Below are positions 1,653 through 52,204 of a stretch of 64,000 nt of DNA, piece after piece. Both the position numbers and the translations under genes were made by a program. The stretch's first letter is position 1; every line of letters starts with the position of its first letter. Below the pieces are notes generated by a model that worked only from the letters and a program-made list of their open reading frames with translations, was not told the DNA's origin and made no database searches. This DNA is from Oasisia sp. SBJ-2009 (taxonomy: Eukaryota; Annelida; Polychaeta; Sabellida; Siboglinidae), in assembly GCA_964017155.1 (NCBI GenBank), contig OZ024856.1:45134610-45198609 (forward strand). The letters run 5' to 3'.

Positions 1653-2880
1653 TGTGTTTTGCAGAAACTTTAGGAGAGATAAAATAAGCTTTATTGTCAT
1701 GTGTTTTTACTGCAGTTACAATAAAACATTGGAATACGTTGTAATGTTGGGTCGTCGTACAAGTATATTCACATGACAATAATGACTTGTAATGTAATTT
1801 ATTGAGTTTGTCATATTTTAGCATAAATAGTTTCGGAGGCTATTAAACTTTGATGTAATGAGTGACATATCTGGAAGTCTAAGAATTCCTATGGAAGAGT
1901 CGATATGGCAATGGTTCCCATTATAAGTAGCATATTCTTGAATAACCTAAATTGTACTATTGATGTTTGCGGAAAGTACCAAATAAGCATCATGCTTCTA
2001 CTTCCATTTCTACTTCTACTACTACTTTCTATTTCTTCCATTTCTAATTTTTTTCGAATTCATAACTTATAATGTTGCACGTATTATAGTGTTATATTAA
2101 ATTAGAAGTAATTATGGTTGCTTGATTGGTTGACACGCTTTCTTCCAACAGAAATCACGAACGGACGCAAACAACTTTGACAAGGACTTCACATCGGAGG
2201 AGCCAATTCTAACCCCCATCGACCCAACCATCATCAAAGCCATCAACCAGGAGGAGTTCAAGGGATTCTCGTTCATCAACTCCGAGTACGGCAAACTGAG
2301 CCTCCTCATGGATCCCCCCCAGCCGGCAGACGCACCAGTGGCGACGACTGCTAACGAAATGGTTGCCACGGTGACAGCGGCCCCGGCAACCGTTGCCCCA
2401 GTGATCACTGCCCCGGCAACCGTTGCCTCGGCAACCGTTGCCTCGGCAACTGTTGCCTCGGCAACTGTTGCCTCGGCAACAGTTGCCTCAGCAACAGTAG
2501 CCCCGGAAACAGCCACCCCACCGACAGTTGCACCGGCGGCTGTTGCTCTGGAAACAGTTGTCACGGCAACAGCTGCACCGGCAACGGTTGCTACGGATAC
2601 AACCACTCCAGTGGCCGCCCCTGTCGTTGCCACAACGGCAGCACCAGCGACCGATACCCCGGCCACCGTTGCCCCGGCAACGGTTGCCATGGAAACGGCT
2701 GTGACAGACACGAGCCCCGTTGACGAGACGGTTGTGGAGAGTTCAACGTGCTCCACAGAGGTCGCCACTGTCACCGAGATGGTGGTCGACGCGTCTGAAG
2801 CGCTGCCATCAGAGGGCAGCATCAGTCCAGTGACGGCCGAAGAGGATGCTGGCGACACACCCGAGTCCTCGTCGTCATGA
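1330..2880 (+). CDS. PRKCE/PRKCH-like: Novel-type protein kinase C (epsilon/eta class), C-terminal exons with long extra tail
   Basis: Two coding exons are seen: 1330-1479 and 2152-2880 (TGA at 2878-2880), joined in phase 0 with GTACGT donor and CAG acceptor; the gene begins left of the window. Exon one encodes the end of the kinase C-lobe, including [11 protein letters not shown] and HPFF, then [10 protein letters not shown] entering the AGC tail. Exon two continues [13 protein letters not shown], the turn motif LTPID and the hydrophobic motif FKGFSF (the S is the expected phosphosite). These match PKC epsilon and eta, lipid-activated Ser/Thr kinases acting at membranes. Family members normally stop within about 10 residues of the hydrophobic motif. 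Here the frame stays open for about 200 more residues, rich in Ala, Thr, Val and Pro, with five consecutive ATVAS units encoded by a 15-bp repeat and an acidic/Ser end ([12 protein letters not shown]). Codon third positions stay GC-rich through the tail, which favours real coding. PKC identity is near certain; expression of the full tail is inferred. Confidence 0.92.
1596..1653. repeat. (TGCG)n microsatellite in PKC intron
   Basis: About 13 tandem GTGC/TGCG units lie in the intron between the two visible PKC exons. Confidence 0.95.
1676..1800 (-). mobile_element. 3'-end fragment of a LINE (same family as the 16-18 kb element)
   Basis: The block from AGCTTTATTGTCATGTG through ACAATAAAACATTGGAAT and GGTCGTCGTA to CACATGACAATA closely matches 15700-15800, the 3' tail of the LINE in the CAMKMT intron, in the same orientation. 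Only the tail was inserted, as expected for a heavily 5'-truncated copy. Confidence 0.75.
2386..2510 (+). repeat. 15-bp coding minisatellite (ATVAS repeats) containing palindromic X-box-like sites
   Basis: Units of 15 bp encode Ala-Thr-Val-Ala-Ser and keep frame. Each junction creates GTTGCCTCGGCAAC, a perfect inverted repeat with a 2-bp spacer, at 2422-2435, 2437-2450, 2452-2465 and 2467-2480, with a one-mismatch copy at 2482-2495. Further related sites are at 2668-2681 and 2683-2696. Confidence 0.9.
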
Positions 2881-13793: not shown

Positions 13794-16700
13794 AATATAT
13801 AATATAATATATAATAACATAACATACTAATTTATTATATAATATAAAACATATAATATATAAGATAATAATTCTGGTATGCAGAGAATGTATTATGATA
13901 CTGGGCCAGGCAAATGCTGCAACTCATATTGGGAGTGCACCCCTCTTATCCCACACCGCTCCCTGTATAGCAAAGCTGTAAATGTGTCACATTTAGTAAT
14001 GTGCAGACAATTCATTATAATTATAGCATTCTGTGTATGTACAGTGAGAAGAACCAGAACCAGAAGTATCCTGATATGAATTTTGTCTGAGCCACACATA
14101 AATACTCACTCTTATAATTAGCCATGGATAAAATCCATTAAATATGTTGTTGTGACTTGTGAACTTACTTGAATTGGCTGCTTCTCTGGAGGCAGAAATA
14201 AGCGAGAACTTCTTCAGCGGGCCAAACACCTGCACAGACACAGTCCCGCTGATAAATGTTCCTGTAGACCATTCACTTCAGACTTCTATGATTCTATTAT
14301 ATTGAAAATTCCCATATCAACATGTTTTTCTCAAATGCTCACTGCACTACCCAATAAGTAGTATCTCCCGATAACACAGAGATGATATGAGATGATGACA
14401 TTGTGATCAAAGTCTTCCTTGAGAATGCTATATCAGGCCTAATAAAGGGTTCTGGATGAACTTCAAATTCATTACCGTAAACAAATGTACGCCACTGGAA
14501 TAACTTGCCAATCGAAAGTAAACAATGTCATTCTAAAATATTTTTTGAAAACAGGCAAAGTTCTTTAAAATATGGTTGTCGAGGAATATAATTTGTTTAG
14601 AACTGTAGGCTAGCTACTAACTTTGTCTAAATAGTTTGCATGTTTTATTAGAGTATGCACATGGCAGGTGGAATACAACATATTGTGAGTATCCAACTTA
14701 CAACGACAAATAGCTAAATTCTTTGCCATCTTCCTCAATATTCGGAGTCATGCATCCACAGCAGTATCTTATGAATAGGAACATACTACTTACAGACATT
14801 GCCTGTATTGTTGAATCCTCGCAATTCCCTCATGCTGAATGGTTTGTTGTAGTGTCTGATAGAAAGAAAAATATTTTTTATTTTAATCCGTGCTGGATAT
14901 TGGACAGAACCAGTTATGTTTTTATTGCATTAATAAAAAATATATATATACTGTAATGATGCAAAACAAATTATACTACTCTGAAGTTCATATAAAACTG
15001 TGTTAAAATGTTTTTGGCCATTCACAATTATCAACAAACAGCATGCCAACATTAATCATAATAACTCAATTAGTTGATTTTGTAATTAAAAGTTTAATAT
15101 ACATTTGTTTATGTAATAACTATAATTGCATAATTATTACATAAACAATTAAATATTATTCATTAACTTTTCTGCATATGTACCAGGATTGTACCTAGAA
15201 CAGTCACAAAATAGTCTCAATGACCTAGGAATATATAAGTAGTTTATAGTCAAGTCACCTGATTTGTGCTGAGAATGAAGGAAATGCAGGACAGGTGTAG
15301 AGATACCAGATGTGCTGTTTATCTCCATCTGTGTGTGTTTCTTCTGTCTTCATAAGTCCAAATGAGTGAAACCGTCTCACAGACACAGTCACTGTGTCAT
15401 TGGCACGGTTTCGCTTGATTGCCTTGAAACATATCATATAATTATATTATATATATTATGTACTACATGTAGTCATGCTATCGTCGTTGATTCACAATCA
15501 CAGTCATACATATCACATATTACAAGACAAGATAGCAACGTTACCAGAATAACATAAAATAGTTTAAAAGTATAAATAAGTACACACATCTTTAAGCATA
15601 ATTATTGTTATTTGTTAATTTTATATTGCTTATAAAACAGTCAGGAGTCACACTAGTACTCATGGAGGTTTAGACCCTAGTCTAAGATAAGAAGATAAGA
15701 TAAGATAGCTTTATTGCCATGTGTTCACATTGTAGTTACAATAAAACATTGGAATGTGTAATGATATTGGTCGTCGTAATAGTACATTCACATGACAATA
15801 CATTCACATGCACCAAACAATGATGTTAAAATATACTACTACATTAAATAAAATAAATAAGAACAATCACATAAAAAGGTCCGAATAAAAAATTGCTCAT
15901 TATAACATCGGTAAATAATTGATACGATCTAGTAGAAATATAGTAGCTTAAAATGTAAAATATGAAATAAAAAAAATTAAAATATAAAATATAATAAATT
16001 ATGATAAAATATGCATACTAAAACTCATCGGAAAGTGGACTATGTGTTTGCTGCAGGTGGGAGAAAATCACTTCTGTTTTGACAGGGCTTGAACGGCTAA
16101 GGGGAAAAAGCTAGTACTAAAGCGGTTGGTCCTGGTTTTTATGGATCTGAATCGGCGACTAGATGGGAGAGGTTCAAATAGGTCATGGGCAGGATGGGAT
16201 GTATCTTGAGAGATGAGAGTCGCTCTTCCTAACAGACGCTGCTGATACAGTATTTCAAGACTGGGAAGGTCTCTGCCAATGATTCGGGAAGCAGTTTTCA
16301 CAACTCTGTTTAATCTGAGCGTTTCCTTCTGTGTAATCGATCCAAACCATACTGAGATAGAAAATGTCAGAACACTCTCGATTACAGCTCTGTAAAAGTT
16401 GAGCATGACCTGTGTGGTCAAACCAAACGATCTTAACCTTCTTAAAAAGTACAGCCGCTGCTGGGCCTTTTTGACAATATTTACAACATTTAGTTCCCAT
16501 TTAAGATTACTGGAGATTGTTGAACCGAGAAATTTGAAATGTTGGACGATTTCAACTGTCCTGCCATCGATCACTAGAGGCGAGGGTGGAGAAGATTTCT
16601 TTCTCCTAAAATCCACAATCATTTCTTTCGTTTTATTTACATTAAGTTCCAGATTGTTATCGCTGCACCAACTGATGAGTTTGTTTACTTGGTCCCGATA

Positions 16701-18275
16701 TTCAGATTCATCAGAATTTGTTATAAGCCCTATCATTGTAGTGTCATCGGCAAATTTCAGTATTTTAGTACCTACGTGACAAGATAAACAATCATGTGTA
16801 AAAAGAGAGTATAACATTGGTGACAGAATACAGCCCTGAGGCGTGCCAGTGGATAACGTAACTGATGATGATAAGTTGTCGCCTATTTTTACAACCTGCG
16901 GCCTATTTAAAAGAAAATCGAGGATCCACAGACACATGGATTGAGGAACACCGAGACTCTGTATCTTATCGAAAAGTTTTGATGGGATAATCGTGTTAAA
17001 AGCAGAGCTAAAATCAACAAAAAGGATCCTAGCGTAAGTATTTGGGCTGTCGAGATGTTTAAGAACGTGAAACAATCCTATGGCGACAGCGTCGTCAACG
17101 GATCTATTGTTGCGATATGCAAATTGAAATTGGTCAAGCAATGGATCGATAATTGATTTCAGAAACTGCAGGACCAAGCGCTCGAGTGTCTTCATGACTA
17201 CAGAAGTCAAGGCAATAGGCCTGTAATCGTTTAAACAAGAGGCTGCAGATTTCTTGGGAACAGGAATGATAGTTGATTTTTTGAAGCAATGAGGGATTTT
17301 ACATTGGGAAAGAGACACATTGAATATGTCTGTGAATACACTCGACAGCTGGTCGGCACACAGTTTAAGTAGACATGGAGAGATGTTGTCCGGACCGGCA
17401 GCTTTTCTGCTATTTAAATGTTGAAACATGCTTCTAACAACATATTCATCCACTGCGAAAGGAGGGAGGGATGAGGAGGGAGTGATACAGGAAGGAGAAG
17501 TAGTGTTCAGTTTATCAAACCGGCTATAAAAGTCATTCAATCTGTCAGGAAGATTATTAGTGTCGGTAGCCGTAGTGTTCTTGGGAGACGGCTTGTAGTT
17601 CGTTATGGCCTTCAGTCCCTGCCAAATGTTCTTGGAGATGTTGGTGGACAGATTCTCTTCAAGTTTGTCACGGTATTTCGCCTTGCCGGTCTTGATGGCA
17701 TTTTCCGCTTCATATCTCGCTTTCTTGTATTTATCTTTATCATTGGCTTTGAATGCATCATGTTTCACCTGAAGCTTGTGTTTAATAGACGTATTGAACC
17801 ACGGTTTGCCGTTGGGGTAGATTGTTATTGTTTTAGTAGGTATACAGAGGCCCTCGCAGAAGGTGATGTAATCACTGACTGTTTCGGTGTACTCGTCAAT
17901 GTCGGCTGCGGCCTCTTTGAATACTCCCCAATCGGTGCATTCAAAACAGCCGCGAAGTGTCTCCATTGCATTCACTGACCACTGTTTCACAGTTTTCAGG
18001 TCTGAGCTATAGACATGCATACTGTCAGTAGTCATGCATGGCCATACTAGCTAGCCCAGGTCCAGGCCGGACAAGTGAAGTGAGTGTACAACATTCAAAG
18101 AAAATCAATGAAAGTGATGTTTCTGATGCTCAATCTGAAACGCGAATAAGCTGATGAAGTGCATCTCATTGTTACTGACACTTACATCGCTAAGTATCTT
18201 CCATCTCTTTTTCGGAACAGATATGATATCCGCTGACAACTTCTCTATCTTATCTGTCTTGTTTACAGGTGTCAT
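8103..18275 (-). CDS. CAMKMT: Calmodulin-lysine N-methyltransferase, complete, ten exons
   Basis: This class I SAM-dependent methyltransferase trimethylates a calmodulin lysine (Lys115 in vertebrates) in the cytosol. Exons on the - strand, 5' to 3': 18275-18186, 15422-15259, 14855-14794, 14229-14169, 13609-13555, 12829-12766, 12295-12235, 10722-10648, 10263-10071 and 8189-8103 (TGA). All introns are GT..AG and every phase closes, giving 912 nt and 303 residues (human about 323). Recognised blocks in order are KKRWKIL near the N-terminus, VSVRRFHSF, NTGNVCVWPAEEVLAYFC, the SAM-binding motif ELGGGMTSLAGLA, VMLTDGNEQSV, ILRWDDET, ADCLFFDDYRP, IIFAPTRG, YDEDIW and LHYPLLLQLF near the C-terminus. 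All match the family in order. The start is the ATG in AGCACCATGA; an upstream ATG opens only a short out-of-frame uORF. Intron 1 holds a sense-orientation LINE. Intron 9 holds a minisatellite ending about 25 bp from the last exon. The gene is divergent from the dehydrogenase-RING gene. Confidence 0.95.
8212..8905. repeat. 31-bp minisatellite in the last CAMKMT intron
   Basis: About 22 units of GATAACGCTAGATACAGAAA plus GATCCCYGAAA, some shortened, start about 25 bp from the last CAMKMT exon. Read on the gene's strand each unit contains CTTTCTGTATCTAG, a pyrimidine tract followed by AG that resembles a splice acceptor. Confidence 0.95.
8906..10070. other. CAMKMT intron 9 remainder
   Basis: Apart from the MITE at 9488-9841 no repeat or exon was recognised in this AT-rich stretch. 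The donor GTAAAG of exon 9 is at 10065-10070 on the - strand. Confidence 0.6.
9488..9841. mobile_element. MITE with terminal inverted repeats and 7-bp target duplication
   Basis: The left end CAGGGCTGCCTACCATTACG and the inverted right end CAGGGCTGCCTTCTTGAC share terminal CAGGGCTGCCT; both arms then reach TTTTCCGTA. Flanks are ATTAAAG at 9481-9487 and again at 9842-9848. The 354-bp size, lack of an ORF and CAGGG termini suggest a non-autonomous hAT-like element. It lies in a CAMKMT intron. Confidence 0.8.
10723..12234. other. CAMKMT intron 7
   Basis: It holds a full-looking SINE (11732-12028). A weak inverted-repeat-like block near 10825-10890 (GTCCACCC with GGGTGGAC) may be an old MITE. 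No exon is seen in the rest. Confidence 0.5.
11732..12028 (+). mobile_element. tRNA-derived SINE
   Basis: A tRNA-like head contains box A TGGCTCAGAGG (11744-11754) and box B GGTTCGAATCC (11787-11797). The body ends in AAAGCACTTTGAACAGTCC, GGATTGGACACTGCGATATA and AAGAACTTGCCTTTTTTATG. The same tail closes the SINE at 26.6 kb, so both belong to families sharing a 3' domain, usually borrowed from a partner LINE. Confidence 0.85.
13118..13328 (-). mobile_element. SINE fragment(s), tRNA-like head
   Basis: On the - strand the sequence reads GGGATGCAGTGGCACAATGG and then a second tRNA-like start, TGGTGTAGTGGTTAAGGCAG. A body follows with TTGGGCAAGTTTGGGCACTC and GGCTATAGACAGGGGTGGAG. Related - strand fragments occur at 43165-43315. 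Confidence 0.65.
13681..13865. repeat. TA-rich microsatellite block
   Basis: TATATA, TACATA and TAATATA runs lie in CAMKMT intron 4. No gene is present. Confidence 0.9.
15686..18062 (-). mobile_element. 5'-truncated non-LTR retrotransposon (CR1/L2/Rex1-like) in CAMKMT intron 1
   Basis: A reverse transcriptase frame (16068-18035) is followed on the - strand by an AT-rich 3' region. That region ends in a GATAAGATAAGATA-type short tandem tail at about 15690-15705, typical of CR1/L2-type elements. The apurinic endonuclease domain expected upstream is missing; the frame is closed by a stop just before the first ATG and host-like sequence follows. It has the same orientation as CAMKMT. A tail copy sits at 1676-1800. 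Confidence 0.9.
16068..18035 (-). CDS. Reverse transcriptase ORF of the LINE, intact for 655 codons
   Basis: This single-exon frame encodes the linker and reverse transcriptase of a non-LTR element, which copies element RNA into DNA at the target site. Visible landmarks are GPDNISPCLLK, the palm block LTSVVMKTLE, FADFS-like FVDFSSAFNTI, GTPQGCILSP, the catalytic FADD at residues 428-431 (16743-16754), then FKFLGSTIS and the C-terminal SVLTFSISVWFGS and RTNRFSTSFFPLAVQ. Full-length ORFs of this group run to about 900-1000 residues because of an N-terminal endonuclease, which is absent here. There are no internal stops or frameshifts, so insertion was probably recent. It is not a host gene. Confidence 0.9.
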   Translation of the reverse strand: MTTDSMHVYSSDLKTVKQWSVNAMETLRGCFECTDWGVFKEAAADIDEYTETVSDYITFCEGLCIPTKTITIYPNGKPWFNTSIKHKLQVKHDAFKANDKDKYKKARYEAENAIKTGKAKYRDKLEENLSTNISKNIWQGLKAITNYKPSPKNTTATDTNNLPDRLNDFYSRFDKLNTTSPSCITPSSSLPPFAVDEYVVRSMFQHLNSRKAAGPDNISPCLLKLCADQLSSVFTDIFNVSLSQCKIPHCFKKSTIIPVPKKSAASCLNDYRPIALTSVVMKTLERLVLQFLKSIIDPLLDQFQFAYRNNRSVDDAVAIGLFHVLKHLDSPNTYARILFVDFSSAFNTIIPSKLFDKIQSLGVPQSMCLWILDFLLNRPQVVKIGDNLSSSVTLSTGTPQGCILSPMLYSLFTHDCLSCHVGTKILKFADDTTMIGLITNSDESEYRDQVNKLISWCSDNNLELNVNKTKEMIVDFRRKKSSPPSPLVIDGRTVEIVQHFKFLGSTISSNLKWELNVVNIVKKAQQRLYFLRRLRSFGLTTQVMLNFYRAVIESVLTFSISVWFGSITQKETLRLNRVVKTASRIIGRDLPSLEILYQQRLLGRATLISQDTSHPAHDLFEPLPSSRRFRSIKTRTNRFSTSFFPLAVQALSKQK

Positions 18276-18597: not shown

Positions 18598-21124
18598 ATG
18601 GTGAAAGTCGCAGTTCTAGGATGTGGCTTGATGGGAATAAAGATAGCAGGTTGGTCGAAGACTCTCGAGTCTTTAAAAATTTGGCAATTCTTGTTGTGTA
18701 CACGAGCCCGAAAGAAATATTCACGGAGAATTTACATACTACAAGTACATAACATACCTGCCAGGCTGAATCGACGATGAATGAGGGTCTTCCACTCTAT
18801 CTAGGCTCTAGCACTACATACATCTATAATTCTATGACTCGTTGGTAATATCTTGGTAATTGTACAACAAGAAACGACACATGTCTAATATCTCGACCCA
18901 CCTGGAAATCACTTTTACAAGAAGAATGTTCAATGTACAGTAACTGCCTGGTTAAATTGGTCATAACGCACAATTATTTTATGAAACGTGTTTATACTAC
19001 ACATGTCTACATGTATATTAGTTATTGAATGAACATGATCAATGTTATAATTATTGTTCACAAAAATACACATTGAATCATCCTTTAAGCTTGATTTTTG
19101 CTCGTCAAACAGGCTCTATGACTATGTACCATGTTCATGTTGTTACATGCCTTCTATGACAAGGCAAAAGGCGCAAGATGGCACTTGACACTTGTGCAAA
19201 GTTAGACATGATGATCATGTTGGTGATAAAATGTATGTTTTTATGAACATAATTTTCAGTAACTTACATATACCTACCATAACCGGATTACCCCCATAAC
19301 CTACCATATGTTGACCTTGTTTGTAGGTGAGATGGCATATCATGGTCACAGAGTCAGGCTGTATGACAACAACGTGAAGTCATTGAACAGTGCCTACATG
19401 AGGATAGAAGAAGACAAGAAATACCTCCATGAGCAAGGCCTGCTTTTGCACAAGAATTTTGTTGTAAGATATCCAGTTCTGTACTGATCTATACAAACCA
19501 AAGATTAGGATTCCATTAGTAACTTGCAGATCTCAACTTGCAGAAACGTTGTATTATTTGTTCTGATAAACTCAAATGGTGGCTGTTAATCATTTTGTTA
19601 AATTTCTTTCAAAAATGTAAATCATAAAGTATTTTACCATCATAAAATGTATGCAGTAATTGCAGCTTTTAATCATTACATGATTATTGAATGTTGCTAA
19701 TTAAAACTGTTTTTCTTTTAATCTTTCACAGGGCCAGATTCTGTGCCTGAGTCGACTGGAGGAAGCCGTGAGAGACGTTGACCTCGTCATCGAGGCTGTC
19801 ATTGATGACCTGCAGATTAAACAGGACTTGTTTGAACGTGAGTCCTGTAGCTCTACTTCTAATACATTCACTGCACTTACAGAGGCTTACAACTACCATT
19901 CCCAAGTCTTTTCTCAAGGAATTAACTTCCCTGTATGCCTATAATTATATCGTTATGGTGGTAAGAATGAGCATGTAATTAGTGAATAACTCACCAGTCC
20001 AATTTTTTTATCTATAGCTATTTAGGTATGGTGCCTGCAATTCCACTGTCAGAACACACTGCTCTCAATCAAAACAACAGTACTTGGTGTGAAAGGTATA
20101 TTTTATCAACACTTAATGTTCACTGTGTTATCTGCATGTTTCAAGGTGTGCCACACATCTTGTGTTCAATATAATAATAATATAGTTTTTTTCACTCTGG
20201 GCAATTATAGAGATTGAAATGGATACATAAAACATGCAAAGTATATTTGTTAAAAATAGATTGAAATAATATATAATTTAAGACATTAGCATAATTATAA
20301 TATAGAGAATATACAATATGTATCTATAAAACTAATTTAAATAATTTAGACATTAAAACATAGTTTCTGTGATTATTTGACAACACTTATAAACAGTTTA
20401 AAACATTAAAATAAATAGATCTAAAAAATAAATTAAGGCGTTACAATATTTTACACATATCAGCATGCACGAAAGTTTGTTTAGAGTCACTGGGAGTTCT
20501 ATTGATTGAACATGTGATCAGCACTTGTTTCTTGACATGTCATACACGTATGTCACCTAACAGTTCACTCTGTCATTTGCTTGTGTTTCCAGGTGTGTTA
20601 ACTCACTGTGTTGTCTATGTGTGTTTCTAGGTGTGTCACGCAGCTGTAGTCCAAACACAGTCATCACCAGCAACACACTTCGCATCGACATGTCGGCAGC
20701 TGTTGAACGGACAGAAAACAAAGCAGTGCGTACACATCTGCAGTTTCTGTAATTTTCCCATGAACTTTACAGCTATTCTGTTGTGTTGGATTGTACACAA
20801 AACATGTTTACTAAAATATAGATAACTTGCAGTATATTGGTAAAATATTTCTGTAATGCGTTATCATTACTTGTTCTTTCCTAGTACACGTGTTGCTGAT
20901 ACGTGAAGTGGTGATTTATCTTGTAGAGAACAGTAGGCCTGAGGTTTCTGTATCCTGTTTACTGCATTCCTGAAGTAGAAATCACCCCTAACAAGTATAC
21001 GTCGTCAGAAACGATAGAAAAGGGTAAGGTTTCTTCATGTTAATGTCAACAGCAAATTCTAACTGTAAAATGGTAATAATTGAGCCTATCCGGTACTTCA
21101 GATTTGTATGTATGTTAATTTATA

Positions 21125-21198
<74 letters not shown>

Positions 21199-23288
21199 AT
21201 TGTATTGAATTTATTGGAAAAAAATAGCAGTATTTGGCAAATTTTACATACATTATACATGTTGTGTGTATGCTGAGGAACATTGGTAACAAATCCAAAC
21301 ATTATGAAAAGTAATGAAATCACCCGATGACTAATCTGTTATAGTCTTTGTGGAGATTAATGGCTTACTGGAAAACAAACAAATCATGGCATGACAGCCT
21401 TCATTGGTACCCTTAAAAACAAAAATAAATTACACTGAGAGAAAGTTTAAACTGTTCTGTTCTCATTGACCTGTGTTGATGTTTCCAGTACGGATGGTTC
21501 TGGAACAGATGGGGAAGACGTTGTTCTTCCGATCGGGAGGCCAGCCCCTGATACTGAATGAGGAACAGAGGGAAGCGAGGGTACAAGGTGGGGACTTACC
21601 TTGTCTTCCACAATGCTAGTGTAGACGTTCACTCTGATGTAACAAGAGTTGCAAGACCATGCAAAATATGCAATATTAAGCTTGTGCACTAAGTTGAGGC
21701 ATCACAATTTGCATTAGATGGATGCATTTATTTAAATATTGTGTATTTTAAATATTTTTTTGAACAAGACAATGTTTTTTGGGTATGGGAGATTTTAAAA
21801 CAATGAGCAGATTAGGGTTTTGCACTGGTATCAGCAATATCGGGTTTTAGCTCCTCATAGGCAAAATCTTTTGAATATTTAGTTATGAGCAAGAGAATGC
21901 TATTGGGGGCGTGGGACATTTTATACATAAACAATGATTATGCAGTGATGTTTGCACTGTACCAGAAAGATCAGAGCTATAACATTTTAGTTTTCCAAGT
22001 CCAAAGTAGTTGACATTCAGAGGTTCTAATACAGACAGTGCAGTGCTTTACTTTTGAGGCAAGCGATCACTCTCACTCCCTATCACTCACACAAATTACC
22101 TATCTAGGGAACGATTTATCACTCGTGCTAATTACGATAAGTGCTCCTGTTAAAATCATGTGGTGTGACTTACTTAACTGGCACTGATCTTCATCTTGCA
22201 GCTCGCATTGAACAGGTGAAGAGTTCTTGTGGTCTGGGAAACTTCTTTGAGAACACAGTGCCTACCTTGGCTCACAATGGCAACGTGACTCCTACGTCAG
22301 ACAATGAGCTAGGTATGTTTTACTGTCAGTGTCCGAGTGTCAGCATTCAAGTGATCATTGTAGAAAAAGAACATGGTTATTTGAAGTTGTTTGCTAAGAT
22401 GTTTTTAATGTGATCTATTACTCCAGGGTCTTTATCCTGATTGAGTGATGCTCAGTTCTTCAAACGTCACCACTAATAATGAGTGGCTTCATGGGTTTAA
22501 GTTTGTTAATTAAAGTGGCATAAATATGCCTTAAATACAAGTTCATGTGGGTAACTGGACCATAAAAAGTTATAATGATTATCTGTTTTATATGGCACCA
22601 CAACCACTGCAGTCCATATCATTTTAGACTCTTTCATTTTATGTTTCAGGGTCCGTACGGGGCCTTGAAAGTCTTGAAAAGCCTTGAATTTGATTGGACC
22701 AAATTCAAGGCTTTGAATTCCTTGAATTTTACAAAGTAGTCTTGAAAACTCTTCAATTTAATTGTGGTCAATAAAATATTGTTTTGACTCAATTGTTGTG
22801 ATGAATAACAGCCGGAAAAGGAAAAGCCTATGCACAAAATAACTCATGTATACATTGGGCAATCAGCATTTCATTGTGGTCAGCGCTATTTTAGTCAAGT
22901 AAAAATTGTAATGTTAACTTAATTTACTGCACTTAAAAGTACATATGTTGTTAAAACAGTCTTGAATTTCTTTTTCAAATAGCCTTGAAAAGTCTTGAAT
23001 AACCTTGAATTTCAAATGTCCGGATGTATATGGACTCTATATTTGCTACATAGAATGTGGGTTGTCTTCTCCTGAAAATGCATCTTGAGACTTGTCGTTG
23101 CAGTGTCGTTCGCGGAGCACGAACACGACTGTGCGATCTGCATGGACCGTCACCGCGACTGCCTGCTGTGTCCCTGTCACCACATGGTCACCTGCAGCGA
23201 GTGCGCCAAGTCCCTGCTCAACAGGAACGACGCCTGTCCCATCTGTCGCAACGATATCACAGAGATCATCCGCGTGTATCACTCGTGA
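18598..23288 (+). CDS. 3-hydroxyacyl-CoA dehydrogenase NAD-binding domain fused to IAP-type RING finger (putative pseudoenzyme E3 ligase)
   Basis: Exons: 18598-18649, 19327-19463, 19732-19837, 20631-20725, 20927-21023, 21489-21587, 22202-22312 and 23104-23288. All introns are GT..AG and phases close to 293 residues. Residues 1-185 follow the 3HCDH N-terminal Rossmann domain: GCGLMG at 8-13, D31 at the end of strand 2 (NAD preference), DLVIEAVIDDLQIKQDLF at 80-97, and a GLRFLYPV block at 134-141. Active family members have NTSSL and GMHFFNPVP at the corresponding places. Here these read NTLRI and GLRFLYPVY, so the catalytic Ser and His appear lost (His to Arg). The C-terminal 3HCDH helical domain is absent. 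A linker of about 50 residues leads to a C3HC4 RING at 242-280 (C242, C245, C257, H259, C263, C266, C277, C280). It ends in IIRVYHS, the position and form of the short C-terminal tail IAP RINGs use for dimerisation. Family knowledge predicts ubiquitin ligase activity; NAD(H) regulation is inference. The start ATG begins the first beta strand directly. The exon 4 donor (GCA/GTGCGT) is the least certain junction. Confidence 0.87.
21126..21197. repeat. (CA)n microsatellite in dehydrogenase-RING intron 5
   Basis: About 70 bases of pure CA repeat. Open frames on both strands are artefacts. Confidence 0.97.
22648..23038. mobile_element. MITE-like element rich in CCTTGAA motifs
   Basis: The ends GGGTCCGTAC and, inverted, GAGTCCATATAC form a degenerate terminal inverted repeat. 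Subterminal regions are full of CCTTGAAAGTCTTGAAA-type motifs in direct and inverted order. There is no ORF. It sits in the last intron of the dehydrogenase-RING gene, about 65 bp before the RING exon. Confidence 0.5.
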
Positions 23289-24545
23289 TACACCCAGATG
23301 ATATCACAGAGATTATCTGTGTGTGTCACTCATGATATATTCTATCTGTTACAACGATGTCATGGAGATATTCCGAATGTATCACTCATTGCATACTCCA
23401 TTTGTTACAATGATATCACAGAGATCATCCTGGTGTATCACTCATGATACACTCCATCTATTACAATGATATTATGGAGATATTCCGAGTGTATCACTCA
23501 TGATACACTCCATCTATTACAATGATATCATGGAGATATTCCGAGTGTATCACTCATGATATACTCAGTCTGTCACAATGGTATCACAGAGATCATCCGG
23601 GTGTATCACTCGTGATACACTCAATCTCTCAATGATATCACAGAGATCATCCGAGTGTATCACTCATGATATACTCCATCTGTCGAAACGATATCACAGA
23701 GATCATCCGAGTGTATCACTCATTGTATACGCCATTTGTTACAATGATATCATGGAGATCATCCGAGTGTATCACTCATGATATATGCCATCTGTTACAA
23801 TGCTATCACAGAGATCGTCCGGGTGTATCACTCATGATATACTCCATCTGTCACAACGATATCATGGAGATCATCTGAGTGTAGCACTCATGATATACTC
23901 CATCTGTCACAATGATATCACAGAGATCATTGGGGTGTATCACTCATGACATACCCATCTGCAGCAATAATTTCATGGAGATCATTTGAGTATATCACTC
24001 ATGATAATTATATGCCATTTGTCACAACGATATCAGAAATCATCCATATGTATCAAGCTTGATATACCACATCTACCGCGACGATATCACGGAGATCATT
24101 CAAGTGTATCACTCATGATATACTGCATCTGTTGCAAAATATCACGGAGATCATTCAACCTTATCCCTCATGATATACTCCATCTGTTGCAAAATATCAC
24201 GGAGATCATTCAACCGTATCCCTCATGATATACTCCATCTGTTGCAAAATATCACGGAGATCATTCAACCGTATCCCTCATGATATACTGCATCTGTTGC
24301 AAAATATCACGGAGATCATTCAACCTTATCCCTCGTGATATACTCCATCTGTTGCAAAATATCACGGAGATCATTCAACCGTATCCCTCATGATATACTC
24401 CATCTGTTGCAAAATATCACGGAGATCATTCAACCGTATCCCTCATGATATACTCCATCTGTTGCCATGATATCACATAGATCATCCGAATGTATCACTC
24501 ATGATATAACCCAATTTTCACAATGATATCACAGAGAATGTGTCA
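23228..24545 (+). repeat. ~57-bp tandem array derived from the RING gene's last coding segment
   Basis: About two dozen diverged units run from the end of the RING exon. The unit ATCTGTCNNAACGATATCACAGAGATCATCCGAGTGTATCACTCATGATATACTCC (given here in outline) copies the gene's codons for ICRNDITEIIRVYHS plus the stop. Several units still translate to CRNDITEIIRVYHS. A subset from about 24120 to 24470 has a variant, more homogeneous unit of about 58 bp (GTTGCAAAATATCACGGAG). It probably forms the 3'UTR. Confidence 0.9.

Positions 24546-30657: not shown

Positions 30658-52204
<21,547 letters not shown>

What the first reader, a model, noticed from the sequence alone, without database searches (positions are those of the whole stretch)
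18598..23288. A dehydrogenase NAD-binding domain fused to an IAP-type RING, with catalytic residues apparently lost
Eight phase-compatible exons join a 3HCDH Rossmann domain to a C3HC4 RING. The NAD motif (GCGLMG, D31) is kept. The catalytic blocks NTSSL and GMHFFNP appear as NTLRI and GLRFLYP, and the helical substrate/dimer domain is replaced by a linker and RING. The RING ligand spacing C-x2-C-x11-C-x-H-x3-C-x2-C and the terminal IIRVYHS match IAP-family RINGs. A metabolite-binding pseudoenzyme controlling a ubiquitin ligase would be a new type of NAD(H)- or acyl-CoA-responsive E3. Fusion and residues are read from sequence; the sensing role is inference.
Basis: partly seen in the sequence, partly recalled or inferred. 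Interest (0 to 1): 0.9.

Follow-up and report, generated by a model that had tools for sequence, protein, structure and literature searches.

The report
Animal ubiquitin ligase with dead dehydrogenase
This gene, found in at least eleven animal phyla, joins a dehydrogenase's NAD-binding domain that has lost its catalytic serine and histidine to a RING domain, so it is predicted to be a ubiquitin ligase that likely uses a retired enzyme to sense NAD(H) or a related ligand.

The parts
18598..18649 (+). exon 1: start codon and GxGxxG NAD-binding motif (residues 1-18)
   Evidence: tblastn
19327..19463 (+). exon 2: rest of first Rossmann unit; NAD-ribose Asp31 at 19365-19367
19732..19837 (+). exon 3: contains invariant Glu84 and Lys93 (HAD Glu106 and Lys115 columns)
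20631..20725 (+). exon 4: NTLRI block; catalytic Ser replaced by Leu115 (20678-20680)
20927..21023 (+). exon 5: GLRFLYPVYCIPEVE block; catalytic His replaced by Arg136 (20942-20944), partner Glu148 kept (20978-20980)
21489..21587 (+). exon 6: end of Rossmann domain with invariant Arg177, start of long helix 187-204
22202..22312 (+). exon 7: helix and low-confidence linker with invariant Pro216 (125/125) and near-invariant Leu218 (122/125)
23104..23288 (+). exon 8: RING (zf-C3HC4_3, residues 239-286 at 23121-23264), C-terminal tail ending IIRVYHS, stop
23298..24537 (+). 56-bp minisatellite (about 22 copies) whose unit repeats the end of exon 8, including the codons for PICRNDITEIIRVYHS; presumably in or just after the 3' UTR

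Best explanation
This gene encodes a 293-residue fusion of a 3-hydroxyacyl-CoA dehydrogenase NAD-binding domain without its catalytic Ser and His to an intact C-terminal RING, and it is predicted to be a ubiquitin ligase whose retired-enzyme domain likely binds NAD(H) and would pass that state on to the RING. Shown: gene structure, fusion, deep animal conservation, loss of the Ser137 and His158 equivalents, no match to the helical substrate/dimer domain, retention of cofactor-site and zinc-ligand residues. Inferred: NAD(H) is bound at the kept site; the invariant Arg136-Glu148 pair where the His-Glu dyad was binds a ligand or a protein end instead of doing hydride chemistry; occupancy of that cleft, through the helix 187-204 and the conserved linker motif, controls RING dimerisation or target choice; the RING works with an E2 through its invariant Arg281 and the C-terminal aromatic tail. 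The Rossmann domain starts right at the first Met, leaving no room for a presequence, so the protein is likely cytosolic or nuclear.
Against: No biochemistry or expression data were available. Eight of 114 rows, bivalves where named (5 of 8), have Ser instead of Asp31 and no obvious consistent compensating basic residue, so NAD(H) binding may be absent or altered there. With the C-terminal domain gone the NAD cleft would be open on one side, which could weaken binding. A near-invariant NAD site could be structural and not regulatory. The single-chain model cannot show dimerisation or communication with the RING; the linker is of low confidence (under 50 at 206-219 and 224-236). Five of 120 rows lack the tail Tyr/Phe.
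Confidence: 0.5

Rival explanations
1. The NAD-binding domain is a substrate-recruiting module, with NAD(H) at most a structural cofactor: its former active-site region (Arg136, Glu146, Glu148) binds a protein target that the RING ubiquitinates, with no metabolic sensing.
For: Of the twelve non-glycine domain and domain-end columns conserved at 98% or more, six (R136, L138, P140, V141, E146, E148) lie in the former catalytic block. The eight Ser31 rows keep that block while losing Asp31.
Against: The cofactor residues are also nearly invariant outside those rows, and a purely structural role is an added assumption.
Confidence: 0.33
2. The protein is still an enzyme: an NAD(H)-dependent oxidoreductase of changed specificity, with Arg or Tyr in the catalytic role, that also carries a RING.
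For: The cofactor site and the catalytic Glu column are kept; many database entries are named 3-hydroxybutyryl-CoA dehydrogenase-like.
Against: No row of 128 has the Ser or the His; the substrate/dimer domain PF00725 gives no match; Arg is a poor general base (general knowledge); the 5 enzyme alignments shown all have Ser and His.
Confidence: 0.08
3. The fusion is a gene-model artefact joining two neighbouring genes.
Against: The same order and similar length recur in relatives from eleven phyla, and 111 of the 120 listed carry both Pfam domains; tblastn supports every exon.
Confidence: 0.01

Closest known systems
L-3-hydroxyacyl-CoA dehydrogenase HADH (PDB 1f0y, 3hdh) and bacterial 3-hydroxybutyryl-CoA dehydrogenase (4kug)
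   Different: Ser137 -> Leu/Met/Ile, His158 -> Arg, Asn161 -> Tyr/Phe/His; no match to the helical dimer/substrate domain; no room for a presequence; RING added.
C-terminal RINGs of cIAP1/BIRC2, MEX3C, MUL1 and MDM2
   Same: Zinc-ligand pattern, CPIC/CPxC motif region and a short tail after the RING; an aromatic near the end in the family.
   Different: Ten residues between ligands 6 and 7 against six in cIAP1; no BIR domain; a dehydrogenase domain instead.
CtBP and NMRAL1/HSCARG (NAD(P)H-responsive dehydrogenase-like regulators; recalled, not searched)
   Same: Works-like comparison only: a dehydrogenase fold used for regulation.
   Different: Other dehydrogenase subfamilies and no RING (recalled); response to cofactor is untested here.
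Invertebrate database entries such as '3-hydroxybutyryl-CoA dehydrogenase-like', 'AIM1-like', 'L-carnitine dehydrogenase' or 'RING-type domain-containing protein'
   Same: These are the same family.
   Different: The enzyme names assert an activity that the missing Ser and His speak against.

Membership tests
3-hydroxyacyl-CoA dehydrogenase (active enzyme) | NAD-binding Rossmann domain PF02737 | tested here: met
3-hydroxyacyl-CoA dehydrogenase (active enzyme) | catalytic Ser137 and His158 | tested here: not met
   0 of 125 and 0 of 127 non-gap rows; window has Leu115 and Arg136
3-hydroxyacyl-CoA dehydrogenase (active enzyme) | Glu170 partner | tested here: met
   127 of 127 non-gap rows
3-hydroxyacyl-CoA dehydrogenase (active enzyme) | helical C-terminal domain PF00725 | tested here: not met
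   no PF00725 match among the 13 families listed to E 1
3-hydroxyacyl-CoA dehydrogenase (active enzyme) | Asn208 | tested here: inconclusive
   register beyond residue 180 is by eye; the candidate columns are 186 (S70 T36 N10 D5 K4 C1; the window itself has Asn) and 187 (mostly Glu)
3-hydroxyacyl-CoA dehydrogenase (active enzyme) | hydride transfer activity | not testable with these tools
   needs an assay
RING ubiquitin ligase | eight zinc ligands | tested here: met
   C3HC4 intact in 120 of 120 rows with all eight columns filled, window included; PF13920 E 2.4e-13
RING ubiquitin ligase | Arg after the last Cys (linchpin position) | tested here: met
   Arg281 in 120 of 120; role from passages of PMC8897509
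RING ubiquitin ligase | E2 binding and ubiquitin transfer | not testable with these tools
   needs an assay
IAP family | RING resembling cIAP/XIAP | tested here: met
   best solved match is cIAP1, E 8.5e-10, but not exclusive: MEX3C 7.4e-9, MUL1 1.5e-8; ligand 6-7 spacing differs
IAP family | BIR domain | tested here: not met
   no BIR among the 13 Pfam families listed to E 1
NAD(H)-sensing pseudoenzyme | kept cofactor site with lost catalytic residues | tested here: met
   exception Asp31 -> Ser in 8 of 114 rows
NAD(H)-sensing pseudoenzyme | ligand-dependent change in activity or partners | not testable with these tools
   needs an assay

The most novel reading that the evidence does not exclude
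A metabolite-gated E3 ligase present since the common ancestor of cnidarians and bilaterians: an NAD(H)-loaded dead dehydrogenase uses an invariant Arg-Glu pair, where the catalytic His-Glu dyad was, to read an acyl or carboxylate ligand or a degron, and sets RING activity accordingly, coupling redox or fatty-acid state directly to protein degradation in invertebrates.
Probability: 0.33. Interest if true: 0.87.

Novelty: new variant of a known kind. Interest (0 to 1): 0.66.

Why it matters
RING ligases and dehydrogenase-derived regulators are both known kinds, but a single chain carrying both, present from corals to sea urchins and often named as an enzyme in databases, would be a directly testable link between NAD(H)/acyl-CoA state and ubiquitination. 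It would also correct a misannotation repeated in many invertebrate entries. It may have gone unnoticed because no vertebrate or insect member appeared among the named rows that were listed, so the usual model animals may lack it (a lead, not a result).

Tried and rejected
Gene-model chimera: rejected. Prokaryotic origin or relatives of the Arg-type domain: three peptide patterns from the alignment in the 84,980-species genome collection matched 202 stretches, none confirmed by tblastn; this is limited by the pattern method. Other copies or a C-terminal-domain exon in the window: tblastn with two proteins that carry PF00725 (P0127, P0128) gave nothing convincing outside the gene's own exons. 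Rfam: 0 matches at gathering score in the window. RING folded alone without an alignment: mean pLDDT 59.5 and an all-helical model, not used. The structure comparison tests model residues 1-186, so the RING was classified by sequence only. Literature on the fusion: seven searches. Searches returned no papers; the four papers (zebrafish peroxisomes, two on pea protein in rats, turbot muscle cells) were seen only as listing and start of abstract and do not concern it. Three more searches served other ends: Ridgeia genome; HAD residues; RING chemistry. Most subscription papers and preprints are not held, so 'not in print' is limited to these searches. The Ridgeia genome paper PMC9921365 was searched for five terms: ring, dehydrogenase, ubiquitin and np493 do not occur in its main text and 'accession' occurs once, in the data statement.

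Full report
What is in the sequence. The region 18598-23288 on the + strand holds eight exons with standard splice sites and matching phases that encode 293 residues. The window is most likely from the tubeworm Ridgeia piscesae or a very close relative: a database protein from that species matches with a single difference (D95E) over the shared part, apart from its end. Searching the window with the proteins of Capitella, Lingula and Saccoglossus finds the same eight exons with each of the three, and no second full copy.

A family, not a one-off. The first protein search gave 206 relatives, 120 listed, of which 111 carry both Pfam domains by my reading of the table. A second search from a coral protein added Nematostella and Desmophyllum, and a third added bdelloid rotifers. 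Named members with both domains come from Annelida, Mollusca, Brachiopoda, Nemertea, Priapulida, Arthropoda (chelicerates), Platyhelminthes, Rotifera, Hemichordata, Echinodermata and Cnidaria. A tree of 31 chosen named rows plus the window needs 10 label changes for 11 phyla, the minimum possible, as expected for descent. It is not well resolved: 12 of 29 inner branches are well supported, 10 are open, and taken singly Mollusca needs 3 changes and Annelida 2; the root is a midpoint. No prokaryotic relative was confirmed.

Catalytic site. In the five enzyme alignments shown the enzymes have Ser and His where the window has Leu115 and Arg136. Over 128 relatives (131 fetched, three left out) the His158 column is Arg in 127 of 127 non-gap rows, the Ser137 column is Leu 89, Met 29, Ile 7, and the Glu170 column is Glu in 127 of 127. 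In human HAD, His158 takes the proton and is anchored by Glu170, and Asn208 of the dimerisation domain stacks against the nicotinamide and substrate (passages of PMC10988713). Ser137 and His158 lie beside the nicotinamide (passages of PMC6333283). So Ser and His are gone, Glu is kept, and the domain that carries Asn208 is not recognisable. Whether the window's Asn186 corresponds to Asn208 cannot be told by eye; only 10 of 126 relatives have Asn there. By inference the domain is a pseudoenzyme, and the Arg that replaced His is under strong constraint.

Cofactor site. G8 99/101, G10 99/99, G13 104/105, E84 123/123, K93 124/124 and D31 106/114 are kept. These six columns average 0.98 identity against 0.65 for the rest of the domain, and 0 of 20,000 random sets of six domain columns did as well. 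The columns were chosen from recalled HAD chemistry, and glycine motifs are conserved in Rossmann folds generally, so this shows retention, not binding. Against it: eight rows have Ser at position 31; the five that bear names are Mercenaria, Ruditapes, Mya, Dreissena and Mactra, and no consistent basic residue follows that would mark a switch to NADP.

RING. All eight ligands are intact in 120 of 120 rows with complete columns, and Arg281 is 120 of 120. Tyr or Phe stands at the tail position 291 in 115 of 120; the five exceptions include the database Ridgeia protein with a different end. The best solved matches are cIAP1, cIAP2, MEX3C, MUL1, XIAP and MDM2. An Arg at that place and an aromatic from the dimer partner help RINGs hold the E2-ubiquitin conjugate in its active state (passages of PMC8897509). 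Ligase activity is therefore a prediction. 'IAP-type' is only partly right: ligands 6 and 7 are ten residues apart here against six in cIAP1, and no BIR domain was found.

Mechanism. My best reading is a cytosolic or nuclear RING ligase whose pseudo-dehydrogenase domain binds NAD(H) and, in the former active site, another ligand or a protein end, and passes this on to the RING. The main rival keeps the same anatomy but makes the domain a plain target-binding module. Sequence cannot decide between them; the invariance of Arg136, Glu146, Glu148 and Arg177 fits both. Linker residues Pro216 (125/125) and Leu218 (122/125) stand out in a region of low model confidence and may form a short docking motif (inference).

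Novelty. Databases hold the family, many entries under enzyme names and others as hypothetical or RING-type proteins. Seven paper searches for the combination returned nothing that describes it; the library lacks most subscription papers and preprints. I rate it a new variant of a known kind: known parts, an ancient combination for which I found no report, function untested.

Noticed in passing
23298-24537: A 56-bp minisatellite of about 22 copies starts 9 bases after the stop codon and copies the end of exon 8; one unit (23678-23722) still translates to ICRNDITEIIRVYHS and others to variants of it. The coding tail from about 23239 is in effect unit zero, so slippage here could change the protein's C-terminus.
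   Followed up: partly
23265-23288 versus database protein P0001: The Ridgeia database protein lacks exon 1 and ends GCITRDILHLSQ instead of RVYHS; this may be an annotation error, an allele or an assembly difference in the repeat, and it lacks the tail aromatic.
   Followed up: partly
16071-18050 (-): 660-codon open frame with a reverse transcriptase domain (RVT_1, E 6.9e-33) followed by an ALKBH8_N match, probably a LINE-type retrotransposon, directly upstream of the gene.
   Followed up: partly
2134-2877 (+): Open frame with a protein kinase C-terminal domain match (PF00433, E 2.6e-14), probably the last exon of an AGC kinase gene.
   Followed up: no
40669-41304 (-): Open frame matching DUF6451 (E 6.8e-15); by eye it resembles the end of a LINE reverse transcriptase.
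   Followed up: no
22650-23010, intron 7: Intron 7 holds an internally repetitive stretch of CCTTGAA/TCTTGAA words, some inverted (by eye), perhaps a mobile-element remnant.
   Followed up: no
family column 31, rows P0016, P0023, P0024, P0026, P0029, P0031, P0033, P0042: Asp31 is replaced by Ser in these rows (Mercenaria, Ruditapes, Mya, Dreissena, Mactra where named): a natural experiment for NAD dependence.
   Followed up: partly
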